A stretch of DNA of 64,000 bases, taken from contig NZ_CP054919.1 in assembly GCF_013364235.1 (NCBI RefSeq), positions 7,923,603 through 7,987,602 of the forward strand, given 5' to 3'. Positions 1 through 55,336 of the stretch are shown here, piece by piece; the stretch's first letter is position 1; every line of letters begins with the position of its first letter. Both the position numbers and the translations under genes were made by a program. Under the pieces are notes generated by a model, which saw only the letters and a list, made by a program, of their open reading frames with translations, was not told the DNA's origin and searched no databases. This DNA is from Kitasatospora sp. NA04385. Lineage in GTDB: Bacteria; Actinomycetota; Actinomycetes; Streptomycetales; Streptomycetaceae.

Positions 1-99
1 GCCCAGAACGAGGGCTTCGACTTCGAACTGAGCGCGCTGTTCACCGCCGACGGCACCGTCCACCGCCTGGCCGCCGACCCCGACGGCCCGACCGGCTGA
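1..99 (+). CDS. C-terminal end of a truncated upstream gene
   Basis: Frame 1 is open from the window edge and ends at a TGA at 97-99, giving 32 residues (AQNEGFDFELSALFTADGTV and so on). Codon use is the same strongly C-ending pattern as the following genes, so this is the tail of a real gene. The family cannot be told from this much. It lies 112 bases before the NRPS on the same strand and may belong to the same cluster. Confidence 0.6.
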   Translation, partial: AQNEGFDFELSALFTADGTVHRLAADPDGPTG

Positions 100-211: not shown

Positions 212-3200
212 ATGGAACACCCCCCGTCCGGCACCACCGCGCAGGACCCCCGGGACCTGCTCGGCGAACTCGCCGAGCACGGCGTCCTGGTGCGCTCCCG
301 CCGCGGCCGGCTGGTCGTCGACGCACCGCCCGCCACCCCGGGCCCCCTGCTGGAACGCCTCACCGCGGCCCGGCCCGAGGTGCTCGCCGCCGTCACCGCC
401 CCCCCCGGCCTGCCCGGCCCCGCCCTCCCGCCCGACACCCCCGCACCCGCCGACGCCCCCTTCCCGCTGACCGACCTGCAGAGCGCCTACCACGTCGGCG
501 AAGCGCACTACCCGCAGCTGCGCACCCCCGCCCACCTCGCCCACGGCTTCGAAGTCCCCGGCCTCGACCTGCCCCGCTGGACGGCCGCCCTGCGCACCGT
601 CCTCACCCGGCACGAGACGCTCCGCGCCGCCCTCGACCCCGACGGCCGCCAGCACGTCACCGAGCTCCCCGCCCACTGGGGCCCGCAGGTCACCGACCAC
701 CGCCACCTCGACGCCGACCTGGCCCGCGCCGCCTTCCTGCGCCTGCGCGAGCACGCCGCCGACCACCTGCCGCCCCTGGACTCCGGCACCCAGCTCGGCT
801 GCACCGTCCACCTGGCCCCCGACACCGCGTACGTGCTGCTCACCCTGCGCCTGTTCGCCCTGGACGCCCGCTCCATCGGCCTGCTCTGCCGCGACCTCGC
901 CGCCGCCTACGAGGGCCGCCCGCTGCCCGGGCCCACCCCGCCCGGGCTGTTCCGGCGCTACACCGAGGCGCTCGACCGGCACCGCGACAGCCAGGCCCAC
1001 CGCAACGCCGTCGCCCACTGGACCCGCCGCGCCGCCCAACTGCCGCCCCCGCCCGCGCTGCCCGACACCGCCGTGCCCGCCGAGGCCCGCTTCGCCCGGG
1101 TCCGCCACCGGCTGCCCGCCCCCGTCTGGAGCCGGCTGCGCGAACGCGCCCGGGAGAGCGGCCTGTCCGCCAACACCGTGCTGTGCGCCGCCTACGCCGA
1201 ACTGCTGCGCCGCTGGTCCGGACAGCCCTCCTTCGGACTCACCGTGCTGGTCGCCACCCGCGGCATGCTCGCCGCCGACACCCCCGGCCTGGACCAGTGC
1301 GTCGGCAACTTCGGCAGCACCCTGCTGCTGGAGTGCGACGGCACCGCCGACACCTTCACCGCCCGCGCCGCCGCCCTCCAGCAGCGCCTGATGGCCGACC
1401 TGCCGCACGTGTGGCTCTCCGGCGTCGAGATCGCCCGCCGCGCCCGGCGCACCCGCCCCGACGCGACGGTCGCCAGCCCGTTCGTCTTCGCCTCCGGCCT
1501 CGACGACACCGCCGGCGAAGCGCTGCCCCCGCACCTGACCGCCGACGGCTGGCACCTGCTGTACAAGGCCATGCACACCCCGCAGGTCCTGCTCGACCAC
1601 CAGGTCTCCGAGGAGGACGGCGAACTCGTCTGCACCTTCGACCACGTCGCCGACGCCTTCCCCGACGGCCTGGTCGCCGAACTCGCCGCCGCCCACGCCG
1701 ACCTGCTGCACCGCCTCGCCGACGACCCGCACACCTGGACCGCCACCCACCGCCCCGACCTGCCCGACGCCCTGCTCGCCGCCCGCCGCGCCGCCAACCG
1801 CACCCACCGCCCCACCGACCCCGGCGACGTCCTCGACGGACTGCGCACCGGCGCCGCGCACACCCCCGACCGGCCCGCCCTGATCGGCGCCGACGGCACC
1901 GTCGGATACCGGCAGGCCGCCACCGCCGCCACCCGCACCGCCCGCGACCTCGACCGGGCCGGCGCCCGCCCCGGCGGCCTGGTCGGCGTCCTGGCCCGCA
2001 AGAGCCCCGCCCAGTACCTCGCCGCGCTCGCCGCCCTCGCCCACGGCTCCGGCTACGTCCCGCTCGGCGTCGACTGGCCGCCCGCCCGGATCGCCGCCCT
2101 GCTGGAACGGCACGCCATCACCCACCTGCTCACCGACGACGAGGGCGCCCGGCTGGCCGCCGCCCTGCCCGGCCCCGCCGCCGTCACCGCCACCGCGCTG
2201 CGCCCGCCCGCCGCCGCCGACGCCTCGGGCGAGGGCGAGGGCGACGACGACGCGTACGGGCTGCCCGCCCAGGACCCGGACGCGCTCGCCTACGTGATCT
2301 TCACCTCCGGCTCCACCGGCACCCCCAAGGGCGTCGCCATCCCGCACAGCGGGCTGCTCAACACCGTCCAGGACATGGTCGAGCGCTTCGGCGTCGGCCC
2401 CGGGGACCGGTTGCTGTCGCTGTCCGAACTGCACTTCGACCTCTCCGCCTTCGACCTGTTCGGCGCCCTGCACGCCGGCGCGGCCGTCGTCGTCCCCCCG
2501 TGCGGCCCCCGCCCCGACCCCGAGCTGTGGGCCCGGTGGGTGGCCGACAGCGGCGCCACCGTGTGGAACACCGTCCCGGCGCTGCTGGAGATGCTCCTCG
2601 ACCACCTCGGCGAGCGCGCCGCCGACGTCCTCGGCGGGCTGCGGCTGATCCTGCTCAGCGGCGACTGGATCCCGCTCGGCCTGCCCGACCGGATCCGCGC
2701 GGCCTGCCCCGGGGCGCGGCTGGTCGCCCTCGGCGGCGCCACCGAGGCCTCGATCTGGTCCAACTACCACGTGGTGGAGGACCTCGACCCGTCCTGGAAG
2801 TCCGTCCCCTACGGCCGGCCGCTCGCCAACCAGCGCTACCACGTCCTGGACGCCGGCCTCGCCGACGTCCCGCACTGGGTGCCGGGGGAGCTGTACATCG
2901 CCGGCGACGGCCTCGCCGCCGCCTACTACGGCCAGCCCGAACTGACCGCCGAACGCTTCCCGCGCCACCCGCGCACCGGGGAACGCCTCTACCGCACCGG
3001 CGACCACGCCCGCTACCGGCCCGACGGCACCCTGGAGTTCCTCGGCCGGGTCGACAGCCAGGCCAAGGTCCGCGGCTACCGGGTCGACCTGCTGGAGGTC
3101 GAGCAGCAGCTCGCCGCCCAGCCCGGCGTGCGCGCCGCCGCCTGCACCGTCACCGGCACCGGCGCCGACAGCCGGCTGACCGCCTTCGTCGTCCCCGCCG

Positions 3201-4462
3201 AGGACGGCCCGGCCCCCGACCCGGCCGCCCTGCGGGCCGGCCTGGCCGCCGTCCTGCCCGGCTACGCGGTGCCCGGCGCCTTCCACCGCGTCCCCGCGCT
3301 GCCGCTGACCGCCAACGGCAAGCGCGACGCCCGCGCCCTGCTCGCCCTCGCCGCGGAAGCCTCCCGAGCGTCCGAAGCGTCCGAAACCGGGGGCGCGCCC
3401 ACCGGCCGCCCGCCGCGCACCGACCGCGAACGCGCCCTGGCCCGGCTGTGGGAGCAGGTCTGCGGCACCACCGTCCGCTCCGTCGACGACGACTTCTTCG
3501 CCAGCGGCGGCAGCTCCGTCACCGCGGTGCGGCTGCTGCGCCTGATCGGCGAGGAGTTCGGGGTGCGGCTGCCGCTGTCCAGCCTGTTCGAGGCCGGCAC
3601 CGTCGCCGGGCAGTGCGCGCTCCTGGACCGCCGCGGCCGCCGCACCCTGCTGACCGTCCGCGCGGGCGGCCCGGAGACCGTGGTGCTGGTGCACCCCGTC
3701 GGCGGCCACCTGCTGGGCTACCGCGACCTGATCGAGGCCCTGCCCGCCCGCTTCGCCGTGCACGGCCTGCAGAGCCCGGCCGCCGCCGAACTGCCCGGCA
3801 CGCTCGGCGAACTGGCCGACGAGTACGCCGCCGCGGTCGCCGCCCTCGGCACCCCCGTCCACCTGCTCGGCTGGTCGCTCGGCGGCGTGCTCGCCGCCGA
3901 GATCGCCCACCGGCTGCCCGACGCCCCGCGCTCGCTCACCCTGGTCGACAGCTTCGTGGCCGCCCCCGCCGGCCCGGACGGCGTCCCCGCGGCGGGGGAG
4001 GCCGCCACCGCGGCCGACTTCTTCGCCGACCACCTCGGCCGGGGCGACACCGACGCCCCGGACCTGCGCGTCCCCGCCGGGCACCCCGACCCGTTCGGCC
4101 ACCTCGCCGCCCGGCACCTGCCCGACGAGCCCCCGCAGGCCCTGCGCGCCCTGCACGACCAGTACCGCGCCTTGTACCGGCTGCTGCTGGCCCACCGGCC
4201 CCGGCCGCTGCCCGGCCGCTGCCCGCAGACCTTCGTCCGCGCGGGCGGCGAACGCCCCGGCGCCTTCCCCGGCCTGACGCCCGCGCAGGAGCACCCCGGC
4301 GCCCTCGTCCCGCCCGGCACCGAGGTCCGCACCGAGCCGGGCACCCACCACACGGTCGTCCGGGCGGACGCCGCGCAGCGCCTCGCCCTGATCCTCGACC
4401 GGCACGCCGACCGGCACGCCGAGCGCACCGACCACCCCGAGCCCGCCACCAGCAGGAAGTGA
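212..4462 (+). CDS. Single-module NRPS: docking-Cy-A(Cys)-PCP-TE
   Basis: 1416-residue nonribosomal peptide synthetase. Residues about 12-62 resemble a TubC-type docking domain. A condensation/heterocyclisation domain follows from about 88 (PLTDLQSAYHVGE, typical of Cy). Its catalytic DxxxxDxxS motif reads RLFALDARS (about 213-221), so the first Asp is Arg. The adenylation domain has A3 (FTSGSTGTPKG, about 696), A5 (GGATEAS), A7 (YRTGDHARY), A8 (RGYRVDLLEVE) and A10 (NGKRDA). Aligning by eye to PheA gives the code D-L-F-N-L-S-L-I-W, one change from the usual cysteine code DLYNLSLIW. The PCP is at about 1092 (FFASGGSSV) and the thioesterase has GWSLGG (about 1220) and GTHHT. Cysteine activation is inferred; whether the Cy domain still makes a thiazoline is open. 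Start ATG follows AGAGAGG. The gene heads a tightly spaced run of same-strand genes. Confidence 0.93.
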   Translation: MEHPPSGTTAQDPRDLLGELAEHGVLVRSRRGRLVVDAPPATPGPLLERLTAARPEVLAAVTAPPGLPGPALPPDTPAPADAPFPLTDLQSAYHVGEAHYPQLRTPAHLAHGFEVPGLDLPRWTAALRTVLTRHETLRAALDPDGRQHVTELPAHWGPQVTDHRHLDADLARAAFLRLREHAADHLPPLDSGTQLGCTVHLAPDTAYVLLTLRLFALDARSIGLLCRDLAAAYEGRPLPGPTPPGLFRRYTEALDRHRDSQAHRNAVAHWTRRAAQLPPPPALPDTAVPAEARFARVRHRLPAPVWSRLRERARESGLSANTVLCAAYAELLRRWSGQPSFGLTVLVATRGMLAADTPGLDQCVGNFGSTLLLECDGTADTFTARAAALQQRLMADLPHVWLSGVEIARRARRTRPDATVASPFVFASGLDDTAGEALPPHLTADGWHLLYKAMHTPQVLLDHQVSEEDGELVCTFDHVADAFPDGLVAELAAAHADLLHRLADDPHTWTATHRPDLPDALLAARRAANRTHRPTDPGDVLDGLRTGAAHTPDRPALIGADGTVGYRQAATAATRTARDLDRAGARPGGLVGVLARKSPAQYLAALAALAHGSGYVPLGVDWPPARIAALLERHAITHLLTDDEGARLAAALPGPAAVTATALRPPAAADASGEGEGDDDAYGLPAQDPDALAYVIFTSGSTGTPKGVAIPHSGLLNTVQDMVERFGVGPGDRLLSLSELHFDLSAFDLFGALHAGAAVVVPPCGPRPDPELWARWVADSGATVWNTVPALLEMLLDHLGERAADVLGGLRLILLSGDWIPLGLPDRIRAACPGARLVALGGATEASIWSNYHVVEDLDPSWKSVPYGRPLANQRYHVLDAGLADVPHWVPGELYIAGDGLAAAYYGQPELTAERFPRHPRTGERLYRTGDHARYRPDGTLEFLGRVDSQAKVRGYRVDLLEVEQQLAAQPGVRAAACTVTGTGADSRLTAFVVPAEDGPAPDPAALRAGLAAVLPGYAVPGAFHRVPALPLTANGKRDARALLALAAEASRASEASETGGAPTGRPPRTDRERALARLWEQVCGTTVRSVDDDFFASGGSSVTAVRLLRLIGEEFGVRLPLSSLFEAGTVAGQCALLDRRGRRTLLTVRAGGPETVVLVHPVGGHLLGYRDLIEALPARFAVHGLQSPAAAELPGTLGELADEYAAAVAALGTPVHLLGWSLGGVLAAEIAHRLPDAPRSLTLVDSFVAAPAGPDGVPAAGEAATAADFFADHLGRGDTDAPDLRVPAGHPDPFGHLAARHLPDEPPQALRALHDQYRALYRLLLAHRPRPLPGRCPQTFVRAGGERPGAFPGLTPAQEHPGALVPPGTEVRTEPGTHHTVVRADAAQRLALILDRHADRHAERTDHPEPATSRK

Positions 4463-4470
4463 GACACCCC

Positions 4471-4941
4471 GTGAGCAGCAGGAGCATCAAGGACATCGTC
4501 GTGTTCGGCGAGAGCGAGGGCGAGGTGCGGCACGTCCGCAAGGGCCCCGACCGGTGGATCGCCGGCGAGCTCGCCATCACCAACACGCTGCAGTTCGCCA
4601 GCCCCGACGGCGCGTTCACGGCCGGCATCTGGGAGAGCACCCCCGGCAAGTTCCGGGCCGTCTACGAGGAGGACGAGTTCTACCACATGCTGTACGGCCA
4701 GGTCGTGATCGCCGACGAGGACGGCAACGCCCGGACCTTCCACCCCGGCGACACCATCGTGGTACCGGCCGGCTTCACCGGGACCTGGGAGGTGGTCGAG
4801 CCGACCAAGAAGTTCTACGCCCACTACCGCCCCGGCAGCGGCCCGGCCCTCGCCACCGCGACGCCGGTGACGACCGAGCCCGCCGAGCGGACCGACGCCG
4901 ACCCGTCCGACCCGTCCGACCCGTCCGTGCAGGCCGGCTGA
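4471..4941 (+). CDS. Cupin_3 (DUF861-like) protein
   Basis: 156-residue single-domain cupin starting at GTG 4471, eight bases after the NRPS stop, with AGGAAG overlapping the end of the NRPS. The core (EEDEFYHMLYGQVVIADEDG, then FHPGDTIVVPAGFTGTW) matches the Cupin_3/ureidoglycine-aminohydrolase-like group, where a Trp follows the second motif. The C-terminal 30 residues are a Pro/Asp/Ser tail with repeated DPS triplets and are probably disordered. Cupins of this group bind a metal and are often isomerases, lyases or accessory enzymes. The substrate is unknown. Its place between the NRPS and the N-hydroxylase suggests a tailoring role in the same pathway. Confidence 0.85.
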   Translation: MSSRSIKDIVVFGESEGEVRHVRKGPDRWIAGELAITNTLQFASPDGAFTAGIWESTPGKFRAVYEEDEFYHMLYGQVVIADEDGNARTFHPGDTIVVPAGFTGTWEVVEPTKKFYAHYRPGSGPALATATPVTTEPAERTDADPSDPSDPSVQAG

Positions 4942-4964: not shown

Positions 4965-6329
4965 ATGACCACGTCCCCCGCCACCGCCGGCCTGCCGCAC
5001 CAGCGGCTGCTCGGCATCGGGTTCGGTCCCTCGCACCTGTCCATGGCCGCCCTGCACGCCTCCCGGGCGGCCGCCGGCGGCGCGGGGAGCGTGCACTTCC
5101 TGGAGGCCCGCGCGTCCTTCGCCTGGCACCCGGACATGCTGCTGCCCGGCGCCCGGATGCAGGTCGCCTTCCTCAAGGACCTGGTCACCCCCCGGGAGCC
5201 GACCAGCCCGTTCAGCTTCGTCAACTTCCTGGTCGCCCACGGCCGGCTGGAGCAGTTCCTCGACCTCGCCACCCTCAACCCGACCCGGCACGAGTTCGTC
5301 GAGTACTTCCGCTGGGCGGCCGCCCGGCTGCCCGGCTACGCCAGCTACGGGCACCGGGCCGAGGCGATCCGCCCCGCCGTCGCCCCCGACGGCACCGTCA
5401 CCCACCTCGAAGTGGACCACCGCGGCCCCGACGGCACCCGGCACACCACCACCGCCGACCACGTCTCGGTGGCCCCCGGCGGCTCCCCGGTCGTCCCCCG
5501 CGGCGTCGACCCCGCCGCCCGGGAGAGCGGCGCCGTCCTCCACAACAGCGCCTTCCTGACCGGCATCCAGCCCTTCCACCGGCGCGGCCGCGAGCTGCCG
5601 CACCGCTTCCTGGTGGTCGGCGCCGGACAGAGCGCCGCCGAGGCCTTCCAGTACCTGGCGGCCGAGTTCCCCGCCGCCGCCGTCACGCTCGCCCACCGCG
5701 GCTTCGCCCTGCAGCCCGCCAACAGCAGCGCCCTGGCCAACGCCATCTTCGCCCCCGCCGCGGTCGACCTGTTCCACGGCGCCGCCCCGGCCCGCCGCCG
5801 CGGCATCCTGGCCGAACTGCGCACCACCAACTACGCCGCCGTCGACGACACCGACATCGACGCCGTCGCCGGACTCCTCTACGACCAGCAGGTGCGCGGC
5901 GGGCAGCGGCTGGCGGTGCGCCGCTTCACCGAGCTCACCGCCTGCCGGGCCGCCGGACCGGGCGCCGCCGCCACCCTGCGCGACCTGCTCACCGGCGAGG
6001 AGCGCACCGAGGAGTACGACGCCGTCGTCCTCGCCACCGGCTACGACTTCACCGAGGCCCGCGGACTGCTCGCCGGCCTCGACCGGTACCTGCTGCGCGA
6101 CGAGGACGGCCGGCTGCTCGTCGACCGCGACTACTCGGTGCGCACCGCCCCCGGCTTCGCCCCCAAGGTCTTCCTGCACGGCGCCGCCGAGCACACCCAC
6201 GGCCTCACCAGCACCCTGCTCTCCCTGATCGCGCACCGCGCCGGCGACATCCTCGACGCCGTCGACGCCGCCGACGGGGCCGCCCGTCCCGCCCCCACCG
6301 ACCACCTCCTGCAAGGAGCGCACGCATGA
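4965..6329 (+). CDS. L-lysine/L-ornithine N-hydroxylase (flavin monooxygenase)
   Basis: 454-residue FAD/NADPH-dependent N-hydroxylating monooxygenase of the IucD/PvdA/SidA family. Visible motifs are the FAD loop GIGFGPSHLS (residues 17-26), the family signature around WHPDMLLPGARMQVAFLKDL and TPREPTSPFSFVNFL, the NADPH loop VVGAGQSAAE and the late ATGYDF. These enzymes hydroxylate the side-chain amine of lysine or ornithine. In s56-p1 biosynthesis the homologue Spb38 makes N6-hydroxylysine for hydrazine formation, and the two genes that follow here fit that reaction. The substrate cannot be fixed by eye. Start ATG 4965 follows GGGAAGAGG; the stop overlaps the next start (ATGA), so translation is probably coupled. 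Confidence 0.93.
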   Translation: MTTSPATAGLPHQRLLGIGFGPSHLSMAALHASRAAAGGAGSVHFLEARASFAWHPDMLLPGARMQVAFLKDLVTPREPTSPFSFVNFLVAHGRLEQFLDLATLNPTRHEFVEYFRWAAARLPGYASYGHRAEAIRPAVAPDGTVTHLEVDHRGPDGTRHTTTADHVSVAPGGSPVVPRGVDPAARESGAVLHNSAFLTGIQPFHRRGRELPHRFLVVGAGQSAAEAFQYLAAEFPAAAVTLAHRGFALQPANSSALANAIFAPAAVDLFHGAAPARRRGILAELRTTNYAAVDDTDIDAVAGLLYDQQVRGGQRLAVRRFTELTACRAAGPGAAATLRDLLTGEERTEEYDAVVLATGYDFTEARGLLAGLDRYLLRDEDGRLLVDRDYSVRTAPGFAPKVFLHGAAEHTHGLTSTLLSLIAHRAGDILDAVDAADGAARPAPTDHLLQGAHA

Positions 6330-6679
6330 GCGGCATCCAGATCCAGCGGCGGGCCGACGCCCCCACCCGCGAGGAGTACGGCTGCGAGTTCCGCCGGATC
6401 CTGCCCTGGCAGCGCTCCGGCCCCTCCGACACCGGCATGGGCGTGTGCACGGTCGCCCCCGGCACCGCCACCACCCCGCACTCGCACGTCGACCACGAGC
6501 AGTTCTACGTGGTGCGCGGCAGCGGCACCGTCGAGGTCGAGGGCGAGCGCGCCGAGGTCGGCCCCGGCGACGCGATCGTCGTCGGCTCGCACCAGGTCCA
6601 CCACTTCGAGAACGGCTCCGCCACCGAGGAGCTCGAACTGCTGTCCGTCTGGTCGCTCGGCCCGCTCGGGGGCGAGTGA
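6326..6679 (+). CDS. Small cupin, probable N-N bond-forming half of a split hydrazine synthetase
   Basis: 117-residue cupin_2 barrel with both classical motifs: HSHVDHEQFYVVRG (metal-binding His-x-His and Glu, residues about 52-65) and GDAIVVGSHQVHHFEN. In known hydrazine synthetases such as Spb40, a cupin domain and a MetRS-like domain form one polypeptide; the cupin converts an ester of N-hydroxylysine and an amino acid into a hydrazine. Here the cupin is a separate gene. It overlaps the N-hydroxylase by ATGA and the MetRS-like gene by TGATG, so all three should be made together. The function is inferred from family and order, not shown. Confidence 0.85.
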   Translation: MSGIQIQRRADAPTREEYGCEFRRILPWQRSGPSDTGMGVCTVAPGTATTPHSHVDHEQFYVVRGSGTVEVEGERAEVGPGDAIVVGSHQVHHFENGSATEELELLSVWSLGPLGGE

Positions 6680-8193
6680 TGGCCGCCCGCGCCTTCCTGG
6701 TCACCGCCACCCCGCCCACCACCAACGGCGACCTGCACGTCGGCCACCTCTCCGGCCCCTACCTGGGCGCCGACGTGTTCAGCCGCGCCCAGCGGATGCT
6801 CGGCCACACCGCCCTCTACGCCTCCGGCGGCGACGACCACCAGACCTACGTGGTCACCACCGCCCAGCGCCTGGGCCTGGACCCGGTCGAACTCGCCGCC
6901 CGCTGCAACGAGGAGATCCGCGAGACCCTCGCCCTCGCCCGGATCGACATCGACGCCTTCACCAGCCCCGACGACGACTACCGCGCCGACGTCCGGGCCT
7001 TCTTCACCGACCTGTACCGCACCGGGAAACTGGAGCGCCGCACCTGGACGTTCCCGTACTGCGCCACCACCGACCGCTTCCTGCTGGAGGCCTTCGCCAC
7101 CGGCCACTGCCCCGAGTGCCTGGTCGCCACCTGCGGCGCCATCTGCGAGAACTGCGGCCACCCCAACGACACCGGCTCGCTGCTCTACCCCGCCGGCACC
7201 GGCACCGCGGCCGGCACCGGCACCGAGCCGCGCGAGGTCGAGATCCTCGTCCTGCCGCTGGAGCACTACCGCGAGCGCTTCACCGACTTCTACCGCGAAC
7301 GCGCCGCCACCATGCGGCCGCACGTGCTGCGCTTCGTCCGGGAGATGCTCGACCGCCCGCTGCCCGACTTCCCGGTCAGCTACCCCGCCCAGTGGGGCAT
7401 CCCGGTCGGCCTGGACGGCTTCGAGGGCCAGGTGTTCAACGTCTGGGCCGAGATGCTGCCCGGCCTGCGCGTCATGAGCGAGACCGCCCGCGCCCGCCGC
7501 GCCCCCGCGCACCGCGGCGACGTCTGGGCCGCCGACTCCGGCTACGAACTCGTCCAGTTCCTCGGCTACGACAACACCTTCTACTTCTCGCTCGCCCACC
7601 TGGGACTCGCCTTCGCCCACGGCGGCCTGCTCACCCCCACCGCCATCGTGACCAACGAGTTCTACCACCTGGAGGGCGCCAAGTTCTCCACCAGCCGGCG
7701 CCACCTGATCTGGGCCCGCGACCTGGTCGGCAAGTACGGCGCCGACAACGTCCGCTTCCACCTCGCCCTCGACAACCCCGAGCACCAGGTCTCCGACTTC
7801 ACCGAGGCCGGCTTCACCGAGAGCGTCCGCACCCGCCTGCACGCGCCGCTCACCGCGCTCGCCGCCGCCCTCGCCCCGCGCACCGGGCAGCCCGCCCCCG
7901 CCGGGCCCGGGACCACCGCGCTGCTCGACCGCTACCGTGACCGCATGCGCCGCGCCTACACCCTGGAGACCTTCTCGCTCCGGCAGGCCGCCGAGAGCAC
8001 GGCCAACCTGCTCGCCCTGCTCGCCGCCAAGGCCGACCAGGACCCGGCCCTGGCCGTCGCGGGCGTCCGCGTCCTGGCCGAACAGGCCGCCCCGCTCCTC
8101 CCGGACCTCGCCGCCGCGCTCGCCGAGCGCTGCGCCGCCGTCCCCGAGGGCACCGTCCCGCGCCTGGACGGGCTGATCGCCCACCCGCTCTGA
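6679..8193 (+). CDS. Methionyl-tRNA synthetase-like protein, probable amino-acid-activating half of a hydrazine synthetase
   Basis: 504-residue class I synthetase-like protein. It has the HIGH-type site HVGH (residues 20-23, in TNGDLHVGHLSGPYLGAD), a KMSKS-type loop KFSTS (about 334) and a MetRS zinc knuckle with four cysteines (CPEC then CGAICENCG, about 143-160). The C-terminal helical part is short compared with housekeeping MetRS (over 550 residues). It sits in an NRPS cluster directly after a cupin and an N-hydroxylase, which fits activation of an amino acid for transfer to an N-hydroxyl group rather than tRNA charging. A housekeeping or resistance MetRS is the alternative, but the gene overlaps make that unlikely. 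Confidence 0.88.
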   Translation: MAARAFLVTATPPTTNGDLHVGHLSGPYLGADVFSRAQRMLGHTALYASGGDDHQTYVVTTAQRLGLDPVELAARCNEEIRETLALARIDIDAFTSPDDDYRADVRAFFTDLYRTGKLERRTWTFPYCATTDRFLLEAFATGHCPECLVATCGAICENCGHPNDTGSLLYPAGTGTAAGTGTEPREVEILVLPLEHYRERFTDFYRERAATMRPHVLRFVREMLDRPLPDFPVSYPAQWGIPVGLDGFEGQVFNVWAEMLPGLRVMSETARARRAPAHRGDVWAADSGYELVQFLGYDNTFYFSLAHLGLAFAHGGLLTPTAIVTNEFYHLEGAKFSTSRRHLIWARDLVGKYGADNVRFHLALDNPEHQVSDFTEAGFTESVRTRLHAPLTALAAALAPRTGQPAPAGPGTTALLDRYRDRMRRAYTLETFSLRQAAESTANLLALLAAKADQDPALAVAGVRVLAEQAAPLLPDLAAALAERCAAVPEGTVPRLDGLIAHPL

Positions 8194-8264: not shown

Positions 8265-9539
8265 ATGCACATCGCGTTCGTCGACTCCAACCCCGCCGCC
8301 CTGGAAGCCGTCCGGCTCGCCACGGAGGCCGGCCACCGCGTGACCTTCCTGCAGTCCGCGGACCCGCTCTACCCGCCCACCGAGCAGAACCTGCGCATCC
8401 TCGGCGCCGTCGACCACCTCGTCGACGGCCTCGTCACCACCGACCCCGGGGCCGTCACCGCCGCGCTCGCCGCCCGGCACGCCGACCACCCCATCGACGT
8501 CGTCACCAGCCAGCACGAGATGTGCACCGAGGCGGTCGCCCACGCCTGCCGCACCCTCGGGCTGCGCGGCACCGACCCCGACGCCGTCCTGACCGCCCGC
8601 CGCAAGGACCGCTGCCGCGAGGCCCTCGACCGGGCCGGCCTCGCCTCCGCCCGCCACGCGCTGGCCGCCGACGAGGCGGAGGTCCTCGCCGCCGCCGAAC
8701 GCATCGGCTACCCCGTCATCCTCAAGCCCCCGTCCGGCGGCGACAGCCTGCTCTCCTACGTGGCCCGCACCCCCGAGGAGGCCGCCGAGGGCTGCCGCGG
8801 CATCCTCACCGGGCTCGACGCCGTCCCCGCCGACTGGCACGGCCAGTTCCGGCGCGGCATCCTGGTCGAGGAGTACCTGACCGGCCCGCTGGTCTCGGTC
8901 GAACTCGGGGTCAAGAACGGCGAGTTCACCCCCTACTGCGTCTCCGGCCGGTTCCGCTGGGCCCAGGACGAGGTGGTCGAGCTCGGCTCCTACATCCCCT
9001 CCAACCTGCCCCCGCGGCAGCGCGAGGACTGCATCGCCTACGCCGTCGAGGTCTGCCGCGCCCTCGGGCTCGACCTCGGCGTCTTCCACCTGGAGATCAT
9101 CCACACCGAGCGCGGCCCGGTCCTCGTCGAGGTCAACCCCCGCGTCATGGGCGGCGCCCTGCCCACCATCTACAAGCACGCCACCGGCACCGACGTCTTC
9201 ACCGGGCTGCTGGAGATCCTCGACCCGGACGCCGAGGTCAACGCCCCCGCCCCGACCGACGGTTGCGTCGGCGGACGCAAGGTGATGGCCCGCCACGGCG
9301 GCACCCTCGACCCCGCCGCCACCCTGGAGCGCGCCGCCCGCCACCCCGACGTCCTGCAGGTCGTCGGCTTCGACAGCTACCGCACCGGACCGGGCCGCGA
9401 CGTCGCCGCCGGGCAGATCGTCGCCCGCTTCATCCTGCGAGGTGAAGATCATCTGTCCGTGGTTCGGGCAGCCGAGCAGATCCTGCACGGTTTGGAGGAA
9501 GATCTGGGGATCGAGCTGATGATCGGTGAGAAGGACTGA
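8265..9539 (+). CDS. ATP-grasp carboxylate-amine ligase
   Basis: 424-residue ATP-grasp protein. The N-terminal Rossmann-like part begins MHIAFVDSNPAA. The ATP-grasp core shows the nucleotide-binding Lys in YPVILKPPSGGDS, an acidic strand ILVEEYLTGP, and the Mg-binding end VLVEVNPRVMGG. Such enzymes activate a carboxylate as an acyl phosphate and join it to an amine, as in L-amino-acid ligases. In this cluster it may attach an amino acid to the hydrazine intermediate; substrates are unknown. Start ATG follows GCAAGGCAG after a 71-base gap. The last 35 or so codons switch to A/T-ending codons (GAT, CAT, GAA, GGT, TTG), unlike the rest of the cluster. Confidence 0.88.
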   Translation: MHIAFVDSNPAALEAVRLATEAGHRVTFLQSADPLYPPTEQNLRILGAVDHLVDGLVTTDPGAVTAALAARHADHPIDVVTSQHEMCTEAVAHACRTLGLRGTDPDAVLTARRKDRCREALDRAGLASARHALAADEAEVLAAAERIGYPVILKPPSGGDSLLSYVARTPEEAAEGCRGILTGLDAVPADWHGQFRRGILVEEYLTGPLVSVELGVKNGEFTPYCVSGRFRWAQDEVVELGSYIPSNLPPRQREDCIAYAVEVCRALGLDLGVFHLEIIHTERGPVLVEVNPRVMGGALPTIYKHATGTDVFTGLLEILDPDAEVNAPAPTDGCVGGRKVMARHGGTLDPAATLERAARHPDVLQVVGFDSYRTGPGRDVAAGQIVARFILRGEDHLSVVRAAEQILHGLEEDLGIELMIGEKD

Positions 9540-9546
9540 AGACCCC

Positions 9547-10836
9547 ATGACCTCCCCTGCCGGCACGCCCACCGGGCTGCCCACCCTCCCCGGCGCCGTC
9601 GACGGCCCCCGCCTCGCGGCCCTCGCCGCCGAACACGGCACCCCGCTGTGGGCGTACGACGCGCAGACCATCCGCGGCCAGATCGCCAAGCTGCGCTCCT
9701 TCGACGTGATCCGCTTCGCGCAGAAGGCCTGCTCCAACATCCACATCCTGCGCCTGATGCGCGAGGAGGGCGTCCTGGTCGACGCCGTCTCCGAGGGGGA
9801 GGTCGAACGGGCCCTGCTCGCCGGCTACCGGGTCGGCGGCCAGGACGAGCCCATCGTCTTCACCGCCGACCTGCTCAGCCGCAGCGCGCTGCGCCGGGTC
9901 GTCGAACTCGGCGTCCCGGTCAACGCCGGCTCCCCGCAGATGCTGGACCAGGTCGGCCAGGCCTCGCCCGGCCACCCCGTCTGGATTCGGATCAACCCCG
10001 GCTTCGGCCACGGCCACAGCCGCAAGACCAACACCGGCGGCGAGCACAGCAAGCACGGCATCTGGCACGAGCACCTGGAGGAGAGCCTCGCGCTGGTCGA
10101 CCGCCACGGCCTCGACCTGATCGGCCTGCACATGCACATCGGCTCCGGGGTCGACTACGGCCACCTGGAGAACGTCTGCGAGACCATGGTCAAGCAGGTC
10201 CTGGTCTCCGGCCGCGACGTGCGCGCCATCTCGGCCGGCGGCGGCCTCTCGGTGCCCTACGGGCCCGGCGAACAGGAGGTCGACACCGAGCGCTACTTCC
10301 GGCTGTGGGACGCCGCCCGGCAGGAACTCGCCGCCCGGCTCGGCCACCCCGTCCGGCTGGAGATCGAGCCCGGCCGCTTCCTGGTCGCGAACTCCGGCGT
10401 GCTGGCCGCCGAGGTGCGCGCCCAGAAGCCGATGGGCAGCAACTGGTTCGTGCTGTCCGACGCCGGCTTCAACGACCTGATGCGGCCCGCCATGTACGGC
10501 AGCAGCCACCAGGTCTCCGTCCTCGACGGCGCCAGCGGCGAACCCCGCACCGGCGAGCCGCTGGACACCGTCCTGGCCGGCCCGCTGTGCGAGTCCGGCG
10601 ACGTCTTCACCCAGTCCGAGGGCGGCCTGGTCCACTCCGTCCCGCTGCCGCGCACCGAGATCGGCGACCTGCTGGTCTTCCACGACGCGGGCGCTTACGG
10701 CGCGAGCATGTCCTCCACCTACAACTCCCGCCCGCTGGTCCCCGAGGTCCTGGTCGACGGCCCCGAGGCCCGGCTCATCCGCCGCCGCCAGAGCGTCGCC
10801 GACATGCTCGCGGCCGAGACCGACCTGCCGGCCTGA
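9547..10836 (+). CDS. Fold-III PLP decarboxylase (diaminopimelate/ornithine decarboxylase family)
   Basis: 429-residue alanine-racemase-fold decarboxylase. The PLP lysine is in RFAQKACSN (residue about 60). Other family marks are HMHIGSGVDYG, the phosphate loop SAGGGLS, EIEPGRFLV, the catalytic cysteine motif AGPLCESGDVF and HDAGAYGASMSS. Start ATG 9547 is preceded by AAGGA at 9531; a GTG at 9526 would overlap the upstream gene and has no better ribosome site. The housekeeping role would be lysine synthesis, but the position as last gene of the biosynthetic run points to decarboxylation of a pathway amino acid, perhaps a hydrazino-amino acid or the final peptide. That is inference. Confidence 0.88.
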   Translation: MTSPAGTPTGLPTLPGAVDGPRLAALAAEHGTPLWAYDAQTIRGQIAKLRSFDVIRFAQKACSNIHILRLMREEGVLVDAVSEGEVERALLAGYRVGGQDEPIVFTADLLSRSALRRVVELGVPVNAGSPQMLDQVGQASPGHPVWIRINPGFGHGHSRKTNTGGEHSKHGIWHEHLEESLALVDRHGLDLIGLHMHIGSGVDYGHLENVCETMVKQVLVSGRDVRAISAGGGLSVPYGPGEQEVDTERYFRLWDAARQELAARLGHPVRLEIEPGRFLVANSGVLAAEVRAQKPMGSNWFVLSDAGFNDLMRPAMYGSSHQVSVLDGASGEPRTGEPLDTVLAGPLCESGDVFTQSEGGLVHSVPLPRTEIGDLLVFHDAGAYGASMSSTYNSRPLVPEVLVDGPEARLIRRRQSVADMLAAETDLPA

Positions 10837-39451: not shown

Positions 39452-41836
39452 ATGGGAGAGCGAGAGGCTGCGCTCACCGCGCCGAAAATGGTCCTCGAAT
39501 CCGGTGGCGACTCGACGGTCATCACCCCGAGCCGCCGGTACGCCCTCGGACGTGACCCCACCAGCGACATCGTGCTGACCGACCCCCGGGTCTCCTGGCA
39601 CCACGCGGAACTGCACGCCGGCGGCGGCCACTGGATCGTCGACGACACGGGCTCCACCAACGGCACCTACGCCGCCGACGGCCACCGGGTCGTCCACCTG
39701 GAGATCGAGCCCGGCACCGTGCTCTGCCTGGGAAGTCCCGGCGACGGACCGCGCTGCACGTTCAGCGCGCTGCCCGAGCCGACCGCCGTGCACCCGCTGC
39801 CCGGCGGCCGCCCGTCCGGGCTGACCGCGATCACCGGCTCGCACCGGCCGCCGTCCAGTGTCATGCCGCTGCCGACCAGGGTGGTGCGGATCGGCAGGGC
39901 CGCCGACAACGACCTGGTGATCGGCGACCTGTCGGTCTCCCGGCACCACGCCGAACTGCGCGCCGAACCCGGCGGCGGCTACCGGATCGCCGACCTGGGC
40001 AGCCACAACGGCACCTACCTGAACGGCCAGTCCGTGCGGGAGGCCCCCGTCGGGCCCGGGGACCTGGTCGGAATCGGCCATTCGGTGTTCTGCCTGGTCG
40101 GCGACGAACTGCAGGAGTTCGTCGACACCGGCGACATCGACCTCGACGTGGAGGACCTCACCGTCCAGGTCGAGGGCGGCCGCACCCTGCTCGACCAGGT
40201 CACCTTCCCGGTCGGGCAGAAGTGCCTGCTCGCGGTCGCCGGACCGAGCGGCGCCGGGAAGTCCACCCTGCTCAACGCGCTCACCGGACTGCGCCCGGCC
40301 GACCGCGGCACCGTCCGCTACGACGGCCGTGACCTCTACCGCGACTACGCCGAACTGCGCCGCCGGATCGGCCTCGTCCCGCAGGACGACATCCTGCACA
40401 CCCAGCTGCCCGTCCGGAAGGCCCTCTCGTACGCCGCCGAACTGCGCTTCCCCGACGACACCGCGCCCGAGGAACGGGCCGCCCGGGTCGAGGAGGTGAT
40501 CGACGAGCTCGGCCTCGGCAAGCGCGCCGACCAGGTCATCTCCAGCCTCTCCGGCGGCCAGCGCAAGCGCGTCAGCGTCGCCCTGGAACTGCTCACCAAA
40601 CCGTCCCTGCTGTTCCTCGACGAGCCCACCAGCGGGCTCGACCCCGGCATGGACCGGTCCGTGATGCAGATGCTGCGCGGCCTCGCCGACGACGGACGGA
40701 CCGTCATCGTGGTCACCCACAGCGTGCTCAGCCTCGACCTGTGCGACCGGCTGCTGCTGCTCGCCCCCGGCGGGCGGATCGCCTGGTACGGGCCGCCCGG
40801 CGAGACGCTGGAGCACTTCGGGTTCGCGCACTGGCCGGACGCCTTCGAGGCGTTCGAGAACCAGACCGACCGCGACTGGGCCGGCCAGTTCCGGGCCTCC
40901 GCCCCCTACCGCAAGTACGTCAGCGGCCCGGCCGGCGGCCCCGGCGACTGGCCCGGCGCGCTCGCCCCCGCCGAGCGGGAGCAGCCGGCGGCCGAGATCG
41001 TCCCCGCCCCGACGCCGCGGCCGCGGAGCTGGCTCGGCCAGGTCGGCACGCTGTGCCGCCGGTACGCCAGCGCGCTCGCCGCCGACCGGACCTTCCTCGC
41101 CGTGATGATCGCGCTGCCGTTCGTCATGGGCGCGATGGCGCACGCCCTGGCCGGCAGCCGGCTGAACCAGGACACCGCGCTGAACGCGCTGCTGATCCTG
41201 TGCGTCGGCGGAGTGCTCACCGGCGCCGCCAACGCGGTGCGCGAACTGGTCAAGGAACGCACCATCTACCAGCGCGAACGCGCCGTCGGCCTGTCCAGAT
41301 CGGCGTACCTGTGCTCGAAGGTCGTCGTGCTGGGCACCGTCACGGCCGTCCAGGCGGTGGTGCTGACCATGGTCGCGCTGATCGGCGTCCAGCTCAGACC
41401 GCAGGGCGGCAGCGGGGTGTTCCTGCCACCGCTGCTGGAGATCACCCTCGCCGTGGTGCTGCTCTCGCTCAGCGCGATGATGCTCGGCCTGCTGATCTCC
41501 GCGCTGGTCAAGAAGGAGGAGGTGACCATGCCGCTGCTGGTGCTGGTCGCCATCGTCCAGGTGGTGTTCTGCGGGGCGCTGCTGCAACTCGACCACATCC
41601 CGGTGCTCAACCAGCTGTCCTGGCTGATCCCCTCGCGCTGGGCACTCGGTGCCATGGCCGCCACCATCGACCTGCACACCACCGTGCCCGGCACGCTCAC
41701 CGACGACCCGCTGTTCGCGCACCGGCAGGGCGTCTGGCTGCTCGACATGGGCATGCTGATCGTGCTGGCCGTCGCCTACGGACTGGTCGTCGCCCGGCTG
41801 CTGCGCCGGCACGAACCCGCCGTGATGCGGCGGTAG
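39452..41836 (+). CDS. FHA-FHA-ABC-2 transporter fusion
   Basis: 794 residues. Two FHA domains occupy about 1-220 (ALGRDPTSDIVLTDPRVSWH with GSTNGTY, and IGRAADNDLVIGDLSVSRHH with GSHNGTYLNG). The ABC domain spans about 230-480 (Walker A AGPSGAGKSTLLNAL, signature LSGGQRKRVSVAL, Walker B LLFLDEPTSGLD). The last 280 residues have six or so membrane helices of the ABCG/ABC-2 type. FHA domains bind phospho-Thr, so transport is probably gated by the Ser/Thr kinases nearby. The substrate is unknown. It heads a three-gene operon. Confidence 0.94.
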   Translation: MGEREAALTAPKMVLESGGDSTVITPSRRYALGRDPTSDIVLTDPRVSWHHAELHAGGGHWIVDDTGSTNGTYAADGHRVVHLEIEPGTVLCLGSPGDGPRCTFSALPEPTAVHPLPGGRPSGLTAITGSHRPPSSVMPLPTRVVRIGRAADNDLVIGDLSVSRHHAELRAEPGGGYRIADLGSHNGTYLNGQSVREAPVGPGDLVGIGHSVFCLVGDELQEFVDTGDIDLDVEDLTVQVEGGRTLLDQVTFPVGQKCLLAVAGPSGAGKSTLLNALTGLRPADRGTVRYDGRDLYRDYAELRRRIGLVPQDDILHTQLPVRKALSYAAELRFPDDTAPEERAARVEEVIDELGLGKRADQVISSLSGGQRKRVSVALELLTKPSLLFLDEPTSGLDPGMDRSVMQMLRGLADDGRTVIVVTHSVLSLDLCDRLLLLAPGGRIAWYGPPGETLEHFGFAHWPDAFEAFENQTDRDWAGQFRASAPYRKYVSGPAGGPGDWPGALAPAEREQPAAEIVPAPTPRPRSWLGQVGTLCRRYASALAADRTFLAVMIALPFVMGAMAHALAGSRLNQDTALNALLILCVGGVLTGAANAVRELVKERTIYQRERAVGLSRSAYLCSKVVVLGTVTAVQAVVLTMVALIGVQLRPQGGSGVFLPPLLEITLAVVLLSLSAMMLGLLISALVKKEEVTMPLLVLVAIVQVVFCGALLQLDHIPVLNQLSWLIPSRWALGAMAATIDLHTTVPGTLTDDPLFAHRQGVWLLDMGMLIVLAVAYGLVVARLLRRHEPAVMRR

Positions 41837-41839
41837 CGC

Positions 41840-42337
41840 ATGGGCCCGCCCGACGGGTTCCGGCCCACCCACGTCGTCCCCGCCGACGGGCTGCCGACCT
41901 GGACCGCCCCCGACCCGGCCGCCGCCGGAGTGCCGCTCGACGCGCTGCTGCCGGTCGCGCTCGCCGAGTCCAACGGCAACTGGGCCCGGATCGTCTGCTC
42001 CAACGGCTGGAGCGCCTGGGTCGACGGACGCCTGCTGGTCGCCCTCCCGCAACGCCCCCCGGCCACCGGCGCCCCGCTCGCCACCACCGACGACCCGCGC
42101 CCGCTGCTCGCCGCACTGGAACGCTCGCTGGCCACCTACCGGCGGCTGGTCGACGAGTGGGCGGCCGGCCGGATCGACCTGGAGACCTTCCGCGACGGCA
42201 CCCGCGACCTGCGGCTCGGCGCGGTGCTGGACGGCTCGGACGCCTGGCTGCTCGACCTCGACCGGGGCCGCTGGTACTACTGCGACGCCGCCCAGCTGCA
42301 GACCTACGCCCCCGCCGACCGCGACGGGCGGAGCTGA
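41840..42337 (+). CDS. Hypothetical protein in the FHA-ABC operon
   Basis: 165 residues, no membrane part. N-terminal segment WARIVCSNGWSAWVDGRLLV resembles an SH3-like bacterial fold, and the C-terminal half is helical plus a Trp/Tyr-rich end (DLDRGRWYYCDAAQLQTYAP). It starts three bases after the transporter stop and ends four bases before the kinase start, so it should be made with both. Family not recognised. Confidence 0.8.
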   Translation: MGPPDGFRPTHVVPADGLPTWTAPDPAAAGVPLDALLPVALAESNGNWARIVCSNGWSAWVDGRLLVALPQRPPATGAPLATTDDPRPLLAALERSLATYRRLVDEWAAGRIDLETFRDGTRDLRLGAVLDGSDAWLLDLDRGRWYYCDAAQLQTYAPADRDGRS

Positions 42338-42341
42338 CCCG

Positions 42342-43370
42342 GTGCCCGGGGAACGGCCCGAGCCGCCGTCGCTGGCCGCCGCCGAACCTGGTGAGCTGGA
42401 CGGGCGCACGCTGGCCGGCTACCGGCTGGAGCACGTGCTCGGCCGCGGCGGCATGGCGGTGGTCTACCGCGCCGAGGACCTGCGGCTCGGCCGCACCGTC
42501 GCGGTCAAGCTGCTCGCCCCCGAACTCGCGCGCAACGAGACCTTCCGGCAGCGCTTCGTCCGCGAGTCGCACATCGCCGCGTCGCTCGACCACCCGAACA
42601 TCGTCCCGGTGTACGACGCCGGCGAGGTCGAGGGCGTCCTCTACCTGGCCATGCGCTACGTGCGCGGCCGCGACCTGCGCGCCCTGCTCGACCGGGAGGG
42701 CCCGCTGACCGGCGCCCAGACGGTGCGGATCGCCGTCCAGGTGGCCAGCGCGCTGGACGCCGCGCACGCCCACGACCTGGTCCACCGGGACGTCAAGCCC
42801 GGCAACGTGCTGATCGCCGAGGGCACCGACCCCGACCGCCCCGAGCACGCCTACCTGACCGACTTCGGGCTCACCAAGAAGTCGCTCTCGCTGACCGGCC
42901 TGACCAGCGTCGGCCAGTTCGTCGGCACCCTCGACTACGTCGCCCCCGAGCAGATCTCCGGCAGACCGGTGGACGGGCGCTGCGACGTGTACAGCCTGGG
43001 CTGCGTGGTGTTCGAGATGCTCACCGGCGGCCCGCCCTACCGGCGCGACGACGACCTGGCGCTGCTCTGGGCCCACCTCAACGACCCGCCGCCGGACGTC
43101 CGGGAGCAGCGCGCGGACCTGCCCGCCGGGGTGGCGGCGGTGCTGGAACGGGCGATGGCCAAGCGCCGTGACGACAGGTACGGGAGCTGCCTGGAGTTCG
43201 TCGCGGAGCTGCGGGCGGCGGCGGAGGTGCGGAGCGCTCCGCGCCCCGCGTCCCGGGAGGCTCCCCCGGCTGCTCCGCGGATCGTCCCGGAGGCCGTTCC
43301 CTCGGTCGCCCCGGGGGCTGACCGGCCGCCGCAGCCGCCGGCCTGGGCGCGGCCGGTGTTCGAACCCTGA
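42342..43370 (+). CDS. Ser/Thr protein kinase (soluble)
   Basis: 342 residues. Complete Pkn-type kinase domain about 25-285: LGRGGMAVVYRAEDLRLGRT, VAVKLLAPELARN, catalytic loop LVHRDVKPGNVLI, DFG in TDFGLTKK, activation segment TSVGQFVGTLDYVAPEQISG. No membrane helix; the tail is a Pro/Ala-rich linker. It starts at GTG 42342, four bases after the preceding stop. Being in one operon with the FHA transporter, it is the obvious kinase to phosphorylate that transporter's partners. Confidence 0.93.
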   Translation: MPGERPEPPSLAAAEPGELDGRTLAGYRLEHVLGRGGMAVVYRAEDLRLGRTVAVKLLAPELARNETFRQRFVRESHIAASLDHPNIVPVYDAGEVEGVLYLAMRYVRGRDLRALLDREGPLTGAQTVRIAVQVASALDAAHAHDLVHRDVKPGNVLIAEGTDPDRPEHAYLTDFGLTKKSLSLTGLTSVGQFVGTLDYVAPEQISGRPVDGRCDVYSLGCVVFEMLTGGPPYRRDDDLALLWAHLNDPPPDVREQRADLPAGVAAVLERAMAKRRDDRYGSCLEFVAELRAAAEVRSAPRPASREAPPAAPRIVPEAVPSVAPGADRPPQPPAWARPVFEP

Positions 43371-54900: not shown

Positions 54901-54919
54901 CCGGGCCGTGGCGGCCCGG
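54901..54919 (-). terminator. Expression-platform hairpin of the M-box
   Basis: CCGGGCCG-TGG-CGGCCCGG is a perfect 8-base hairpin directly downstream of the aptamer, placed to stop transcription when the aptamer binds Mg2+. Confidence 0.7.
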
Positions 54920-54929
54920 CACACCCCAA

Positions 54930-55083
54930 CTCGTCAGAGCTTTGGCACTCCACGGCGTGTCCCCGGCAGCGGGGAAGCCACTTGGGGTCACCCCTTGGGC
55001 CGGGGAGACCTGTCCTGATCCGGAGCGTCTCTCGACGGGTGGGATCAGTGGCCTGTGTCCGTGAAGACGCCTCACCGAACGAG
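54930..55083 (-). ncRNA. M-box (ykoK-type) magnesium riboswitch
   Basis: Read on the minus strand, the RNA has CTCGTTCGGTGAGGC, the purine-rich ACGGACACAGGCCACTG, GAGAGACGCTCCGGATCAGG and the 3' end GTGCCAAAGCTCTGACGAG. These match the Bacillus subtilis ykoK leader in order (GTTAGGTGAGGC; AGACGCC; AGTGCTAAAGCTCTACGA). Helix P1 pairs CTCGT with ACGAG. M-boxes fold on Mg2+ and turn genes off. A TATCCT at 55105-55110 (plus coordinates) may be its -10. The position fixes the Mg role of the two genes downstream. Confidence 0.93.
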
Positions 55084-55336
55084 GTGTCTTGTCGTTGCGC
55101 CACCAGGATAGGGCCCCGACCACCCCCACCACCTCATCCTTGACCAGGGTTTGACCGCTCGATCACGTTCCGGACCGGCCGTTCCGGCGCCGCTCCGTAC
55201 CTCCGTACGGCCACGGCGCGGTGCGGCCCGGGGCGCGTATCGGCGGGAGGGTTGTGGCCGAACCGCAACGCGCCGGGTGGCGTGATCAGGTACGGCGATT
55301 GGCGATGATGACCGGCACAGGAGACGGGGGAGGATC

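What the first reader, a model, noticed from the sequence alone, without database searches (positions are those of the whole stretch)
4965..8193. Split hydrazine synthetase: N-hydroxylase, cupin and MetRS-like protein as three overlapping genes
Seen: an IucD/PvdA-type N-hydroxylase, a 117-residue cupin and a 504-residue MetRS-like protein overlap by ATGA and TGATG. Known: in the s56-p1 pathway Spb38 N-hydroxylates lysine and Spb40, a cupin/MetRS-like fusion, makes the N-N bond; other cupin/MetRS hydrazine enzymes I recall are also fusions. Inferred: this trio forms an N-N bond with the two halves on separate chains, which would allow separate study of activation and rearrangement.
Basis: partly seen in the sequence, partly recalled or inferred. 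Interest (0 to 1): 0.92.

Follow-up and report, generated by a model that had tools for sequence, protein, structure and literature searches.

The report
Split hydrazine-forming enzyme in peptide cluster
Three overlapping genes encode a lysine/ornithine N-hydroxylase, a metal-binding cupin and a MetRS-like activating enzyme that very probably join two nitrogen atoms, but this two-protein layout of the joining enzyme is common and already studied; the new part is the uncharacterised peptide-making gene cluster around it.

Summary
The inferred function, N-N bond formation by two separate chains, is well supported: the cupin keeps all four metal-ligand positions including the essential Glu, the MetRS-like protein keeps HIGH and KFSTS but has lost the methionine pocket, and it lies outside housekeeping MetRS in a tree. 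The claim of novelty is not supported. Stand-alone cupin/MetRS pairs were described in 2010 and tested biochemically in 2021 (RHS1, Rhodococcus jostii), when PyrN's halves were also shown to work in trans. In my sample of near relatives 87 MetRS-like hits had a separate cupin and 9 were fused. What is less ordinary is the setting: a rare ten-gene NRPS cluster with a second cupin, an ATP-grasp ligase and an E. coli-type LysA, and no cleavage enzyme. It has the same order in five Streptomycetaceae and is largely conserved in two Pseudomonas. It is found in 4 of 395 Streptomycetaceae and 2 of 299 Pseudomonas genomes searched. Its product is unknown to me. Verdict: a new member of a known kind, of modest interest.

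The parts
1..99 (+). 3' end of NRPS1 (A-T-C-T, 1161 aa; starts upstream of the window at genome 7920216, L007:10217-13702)
   Evidence: Pfam AMP-binding, two PP-binding, Condensation; orthologues in all clusters of this clade
212..4462 (+). NRPS2: Cy-like condensation domain (RxxxxD in place of DxxxxD), A domain with a Cys-like code, T, TE
   Evidence: Pfam; motifs compared across orthologues
4471..4941 (+). Second cupin (Cupin_3/EutQ-like, 156 aa), role unknown; 67% identical in Pseudomonas viridiflava
4965..6329 (+). Flavin-dependent lysine/ornithine N-hydroxylase (454 aa)
   Evidence: PF13434 295 bits; closest solved structures MbtG 276, PvdA-type ornithine monooxygenase 272, KtzI 242 bits
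6326..6679 (+). Stand-alone N-N forming cupin (117 aa); predicted metal ligands H52, H54, E58, H92
   Evidence: PF07883; H54 and E58 present in 99 of 99 and H92 in 98 of 98 cupins aligned, equivalent to RHS1 H65, E69, H103; AlphaFold2 cupin fold, pLDDT 89.7
6679..8193 (+). Stand-alone MetRS-like amino-acid activating protein (504 aa); HVGH and KFSTS (K335) motifs
   Evidence: PF09334; far below NCBIfam MetRS cut-offs; tree; pocket comparison
8265..9539 (+). ATP-grasp ligase, BacD / L-amino acid ligase-like (424 aa)
   Evidence: 75-78% identical in Streptomyces clusters
9526..10836 (+). E. coli-type diaminopimelate decarboxylase LysA (ORF from GTG 9526; ATG at 9547), second lysA of this genome
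   Evidence: TIGR01048 384 bits, above cut-off; 64% identical to E. coli LysA, 30% to own housekeeping LysA, catalytic residues kept

Best explanation
The trio is a two-component (trans-acting) hydrazine synthetase with its dedicated N-hydroxylase, inside an NRPS gene cluster. Proposed mechanism: the flavoenzyme hydroxylates the side-chain amine of a basic amino acid, probably lysine since the cluster carries its own LysA. The MetRS-like protein adenylates a second amino acid with ATP and passes it to the hydroxylamine oxygen, giving an unstable O-aminoacyl hydroxylamine. The cupin (H52/H54/E58/H92) captures that ester and rearranges it to the N-N bonded conjugate. The two NRPSs, and perhaps the ATP-grasp ligase, then build the conjugate into a small Cys-containing peptide exported by the MFS pump. 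Shown here: gene anatomy, conserved motifs, phylogenetic placement, conserved neighbourhood. Established for homologues in the literature: the three-step chemistry. Inferred: lysine as substrate, uncleaved use of the conjugate, Cys as partner, and everything about the product.
For: Architecture and motifs; same order and spacing of NMO-cupin-MetRS in dozens of loci; cupin Glu and two His positions invariant, aligned to the experimentally tested RHS1 residues; MetRS-like protein outside housekeeping MetRS at 100 support and in a 7-member clade (97, 99); methionine-pocket residues L13, Y15, Y260 and H301 of E. coli MetG replaced by P, T, L and F, with the pocket identical in all seven clade members; published in vitro mechanism for PyrN/RHS1 and published split pairs. 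Lysine: cluster LysA is a complete DAP decarboxylase of E. coli type while a housekeeping lysA exists elsewhere.
Against: No product or activity data exist for this cluster. Identity to the one characterised split partner at hand (R. jostii MetRS-like) is only about 30% and its place in the tree is on a long branch. The NMO is equally close to lysine and ornithine hydroxylases. LysA could act on a pathway intermediate rather than supply lysine. The fold search finds cupins generally and does not list RHS1 (5UQP) among its best 50.
Confidence: 0.88

Rival explanations
1. The MetRS-like protein joins the N-hydroxylated amino acid to another amino acid as a stable ester, hydroxamate or peptide (a ligase), and the cupin does something else, so no N-N bond forms (the 2010 peptide-ligase proposal for this family).
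For: Proposed from gene context in PMC2922099; ATP-grasp and NRPS neighbours show that a peptide is made; PyrN's MetRS-like part alone yields an N-acyl hydroxylamine shunt product.
Against: Later in vitro work on PyrN/RHS1 and several homologous pairs showed N-N formation with an essential cupin Glu; that Glu and the His ligands are kept here.
Confidence: 0.06
2. A siderophore cluster: the N-hydroxylase feeds a hydroxamate, and the MetRS-like and cupin genes are accessory.
For: NRPS plus Lys/Orn monooxygenase is a standard NRP-metallophore signature; the MFS weakly resembles EntS.
Against: No hydroxamate acyltransferase, ferric-siderophore receptor or ABC uptake gene in the conserved ten genes; MetRS-like next to the monooxygenase is used as an exclusion rule for metallophores in antiSMASH (PMC12971057).
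Confidence: 0.04
3. A duplicated or resistance-type methionyl-tRNA synthetase that protects or translates.
For: Pfam and NCBIfam name MetRS as the closest family.
Against: Scores far below curated MetRS cut-offs (265 against 553 bits); genuine MetRS elsewhere in the genome; methionine pocket lost; outside housekeeping MetRS in trees. Mupirocin-type MetRS2 was not itself included in the tree.
Confidence: 0.02

Closest known systems
Rhodococcus jostii RHA1 NMO / stand-alone MetRS-like / RHS1 cupin (PDB 5UQP, plasmid pRHL1)
   Same: Three separate proteins; cupin ligand positions D63/H65/E69/H103 align with the window cupin; same proposed chemistry
   Different: Uses glutamate; its MetRS-like protein has Arg where the window has F303; cupin gene lies before the NMO and MetRS genes; published locus is linked to a saccharopine dehydrogenase; about 30% identity
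Spb38/Spb40 (s56-p1), Tri26/Tri28 (triacsin), AzsL/AzsN (azaserine), PyrM/PyrN (pyrazomycin)
   Same: N-hydroxylase plus cupin and MetRS-like halves giving a hydrazine
   Different: Halves fused in one chain; conjugate then cleaved by an FAD oxidase or saccharopine dehydrogenase, neither of which is among the conserved genes here
Albofungin Afn8/Afn9/Afn18 (abf orfD-orfE/abf6)
   Same: Separate cupin and MetRS-like genes with lysine N6-hydroxylase
   Different: Type II polyketide cluster with FAD oxidoreductase and hydrazine transferase
Cluster family found here: Kitasatospora (window, G027), Streptomyces NRRL S-37, S. fumanus, G277, Pseudomonas viridiflava, G474
   Same: Orthologous NRPS1-NRPS2-cupin3-NMO-cupin-MetRS with LysA, MFS and ATP-grasp
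   Different: Pseudomonas versions lack the circularly permuted ATP-grasp gene, have the MFS between MetRS and LysA, and a divergent ATP-grasp on the opposite strand

Membership tests
MetRS-like/cupin hydrazine synthetases (Spb40/PyrN/RHS1 family) | Cupin with the metal ligand set (H/D)xHxxxE...H including the catalytic Glu (PyrN E56, RHS1 E69) | tested here: met
   Window H52, H54, E58, H92; E58 invariant in 99 of 99 cupins
MetRS-like/cupin hydrazine synthetases (Spb40/PyrN/RHS1 family) | MetRS-like catalytic core with HIGH motif and the ATP-site lysine (PyrN K458) | tested here: met
   H20-x-G22-H23 and K335-FS invariant in the 18-sequence alignment
MetRS-like/cupin hydrazine synthetases (Spb40/PyrN/RHS1 family) | Linked Lys/Orn/DABA N-hydroxylase gene | tested here: met
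   PF13434 protein overlapping the cupin gene; same in most relatives
MetRS-like/cupin hydrazine synthetases (Spb40/PyrN/RHS1 family) | Groups with characterised members in a tree | tested here: inconclusive
MetRS-like/cupin hydrazine synthetases (Spb40/PyrN/RHS1 family) | ATP-dependent, tRNA-independent ester formation and zinc-dependent N-N rearrangement | not testable with these tools
   Needs purified proteins
Housekeeping methionyl-tRNA synthetase | Passes curated MetRS model cut-offs and keeps the methionine pocket | tested here: not met
   265 bits against cut-off 553; E. coli L13, Y15, Y260, H301 become P, T, L, F
Mupirocin-type MetRS2 | Clusters with resistance-type MetRS | not tested
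   No MetRS2 sequence was included
NRP hydroxamate siderophore cluster | Hydroxylamine acyltransferase and siderophore uptake genes | tested here: not met
   None among the ten conserved genes

The most novel reading that the evidence does not exclude
The cluster makes an undescribed hydrazine-containing peptide in which the intact two-amino-acid hydrazine conjugate is itself the NRPS monomer. It would be activated by an A domain lacking the usual Asp235 and joined to cysteine through a Cy-type domain carrying RxxxxD, by a pathway shared between Streptomycetaceae and Pseudomonas.
Probability: 0.33. Interest if true: 0.55.

Novelty: new member of a known kind. Interest (0 to 1): 0.3.

Why it matters
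As an enzyme system it confirms that two-chain hydrazine synthetases are common and adds a well-delimited clade. As a pathway it points to an orphan, rare NRPS cluster family with no cleavage enzyme and its own lysine-making gene, so it may lead to a new hydrazine peptide scaffold and a natural pair for mix-and-match N-N biocatalysis.

Tried and rejected
Split layout as a new feature: rejected after literature and a survey of relatives. Own-genome second MetRS-like locus (1775005-1776456) first looked like a 941-aa fusion from the open frame; reading it showed a separate MetRS-like gene overlapping its NMO by TGATG with a cupin about 10 kb away. Literature searches for a hydrazine NRPS cluster with LysA, or for Pseudomonas hydrazine clusters, gave no description of this cluster. 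Fold search of the cupin model only returns generic cupins, best plu4264. Solved MetRS-like structures 9vq4 and 9l8v are the nearest in PDB but no paper on them was searched for or read. Substrate amino acid could not be assigned; glutamate is made less likely by F303 in place of the R. jostii Arg.

Full report
Observation. Reading the window confirms every stated coordinate: NMO 4965-6329, cupin 6326-6679 overlapping by ATGA, MetRS-like protein 6679-8193 overlapping by TGATG, lengths 454, 117 and 504 aa. Codon-position GC supports coding. Pfam gives PF13434, PF07883 and PF09334.

What the proteins are. The MetRS-like protein is well below the curated MetRS cut-offs (best 265 bits against 553), and the genome has a separate MetRS (27% identity to it). 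In an alignment of 18 relatives the HIGH-type residues and the KFS of KFSTS are invariant. Mapped on E. coli MetG, pocket residues L13, Y15, Y260 and H301 become P12, T14, L263 and F303; the twelve pocket positions compared are identical in the window and its six nearest relatives, P. viridiflava included, which suggests one shared amino-acid substrate. The R. jostii partner, which literature shows using glutamate, has Arg at the F303 position, so glutamate is less likely here (inference). The cupin carries H52, H54, E58 and H92; H54 and E58 are present in 99 of 99 and H92 in 98 of 98 aligned cupins, matching RHS1 H65, E69 and H103, whose alanine variants are inactive. An AlphaFold2 model is a confident cupin (pLDDT 89.7) with plu4264 as best PDB match, which is not discriminating. 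The NMO is about equally close to lysine (MbtG) and ornithine (PvdA-type, KtzI) hydroxylases.

Is the split new? No. PMC2922099 (2010) reports stand-alone cupins next to the MetRS paralogue and the constant association with a lysine N6-monooxygenase, with NRPS and ATP-grasp genes in some of these operons. PMC8664883 (2021) says the enzymes sometimes exist as two stand-alone proteins, shows that truncated PyrN halves cooperate in trans, identifies the O-ester intermediate, and tests the natural stand-alone cupin RHS1 of R. jostii. The 2024 review lists further two-gene entries and albofungin Afn8/Afn9/Afn18, also described in PMC9469721. I located the R. jostii set on pRHL1 and confirmed separate cupin, NMO and MetRS-like ORFs.

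Survey and tree. One scan of named genomes gave 80 relatives and 120 related genomes gave more, 35 with a match. Of 111 MetRS-like hits scored, 87 had a separate cupin in the fetched stretch, 9 were fused and 15 had none in the stretch; the sample is biased to near relatives of a split query. In a 108-row FastTree the window sits in a supported clade of seven, all split: Kitasatospora G027 (94%), S. fumanus, Streptomyces NRRL S-37, S. nigrescens plasmid SNP1, Streptomyces NRRL S-337 and P. viridiflava; housekeeping MetRS lies outside at 100. A 39-row IQ-TREE run agrees (99 for the clade; 100 for housekeeping apart); the fused/split state needs as few as two changes there.

Surroundings. The same ten genes occur in the same order in the window, G027, NRRL S-37, S. 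fumanus and G277: circularly permuted ATP-grasp, MFS, NRPS1 (A-T-C-T), NRPS2 (Cy-like, A, T, TE), Cupin_3, NMO, cupin, MetRS-like, ATP-grasp, LysA; in G277 the circularly permuted ATP-grasp match is partial. P. viridiflava and G474 keep NRPS1 through MetRS plus an MFS-like gene (by position and hydrophobic start; not family-searched), LysA, and a divergent ATP-grasp on the other strand. A minimal form in S. angustmyceticus is NRPS1-NMO-cupin-MetRS-hydrolase-MATE. Close relatives of this MetRS-like protein are rare: 4 of 395 Streptomycetaceae and 2 of 299 Pseudomonas genomes, window and query genomes included.

Inferences about the pathway. Cluster LysA is 64% identical to E. coli LysA but 30% to the genome's own housekeeping LysA, and keeps the catalytic residues checked, so it looks horizontally acquired and able to make lysine; this makes lysine the likeliest NMO substrate (inference). 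No Spb39-type oxidase or saccharopine dehydrogenase is among the conserved genes in either the full or the minimal form, so the uncleaved conjugate may be the NRPS monomer (inference). Read by hand, the A1 code is TNRMFSVYSK, with Thr in place of Asp235, and nearly unchanged in Pseudomonas; the A2 code is DLFNLSLIWK, near the cysteine code DLYNLSLIWK from my own knowledge; the NRPS2 Cy motif is RxxxxD in the window, G027, NRRL S-37, S. fumanus and P. viridiflava. Product unknown: literature searches did not find this cluster.

Verdict. Function as inferred is very likely; the stated novelty is not there. New member of a known kind, with an uncharacterised biosynthetic cluster family worth a metabolite search.

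Noticed in passing
genome G000:C1:1775005-1776456 (L008, L054): Second split hydrazine-type locus in the same genome: NMO overlapping a MetRS-like gene by TGATG, an FAD oxidoreductase ORF, two ATP-grasp genes, MFS, and a cupin about 10 kb away; this clade recurs in many Kitasatospora.
   Followed up: partly
window 9526-10836: An E. coli-type LysA (64% to E. coli, 30% to own housekeeping LysA) inside an actinomycete cluster, apparently moved between phyla.
   Followed up: partly
window 4471-4941: Second, Cupin_3-type gene, more conserved to Pseudomonas (67%) than the NMO or the N-N cupin; no assigned role.
   Followed up: partly
window 212-4462: Cy-type NRPS domain with RxxxxD instead of DxxxxD in all intact orthologues compared; Cys-like A-domain code.
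   Followed up: partly
window 54918-55090 (-): M-box magnesium riboswitch (133.5 bits) upstream of an MgtE_N/CBS protein and an Nramp transporter on the same strand.
   Followed up: no
window 39452-43370: FHA-domain ABC transporter and a protein kinase on the same strand, about 0.5 kb apart.
   Followed up: no
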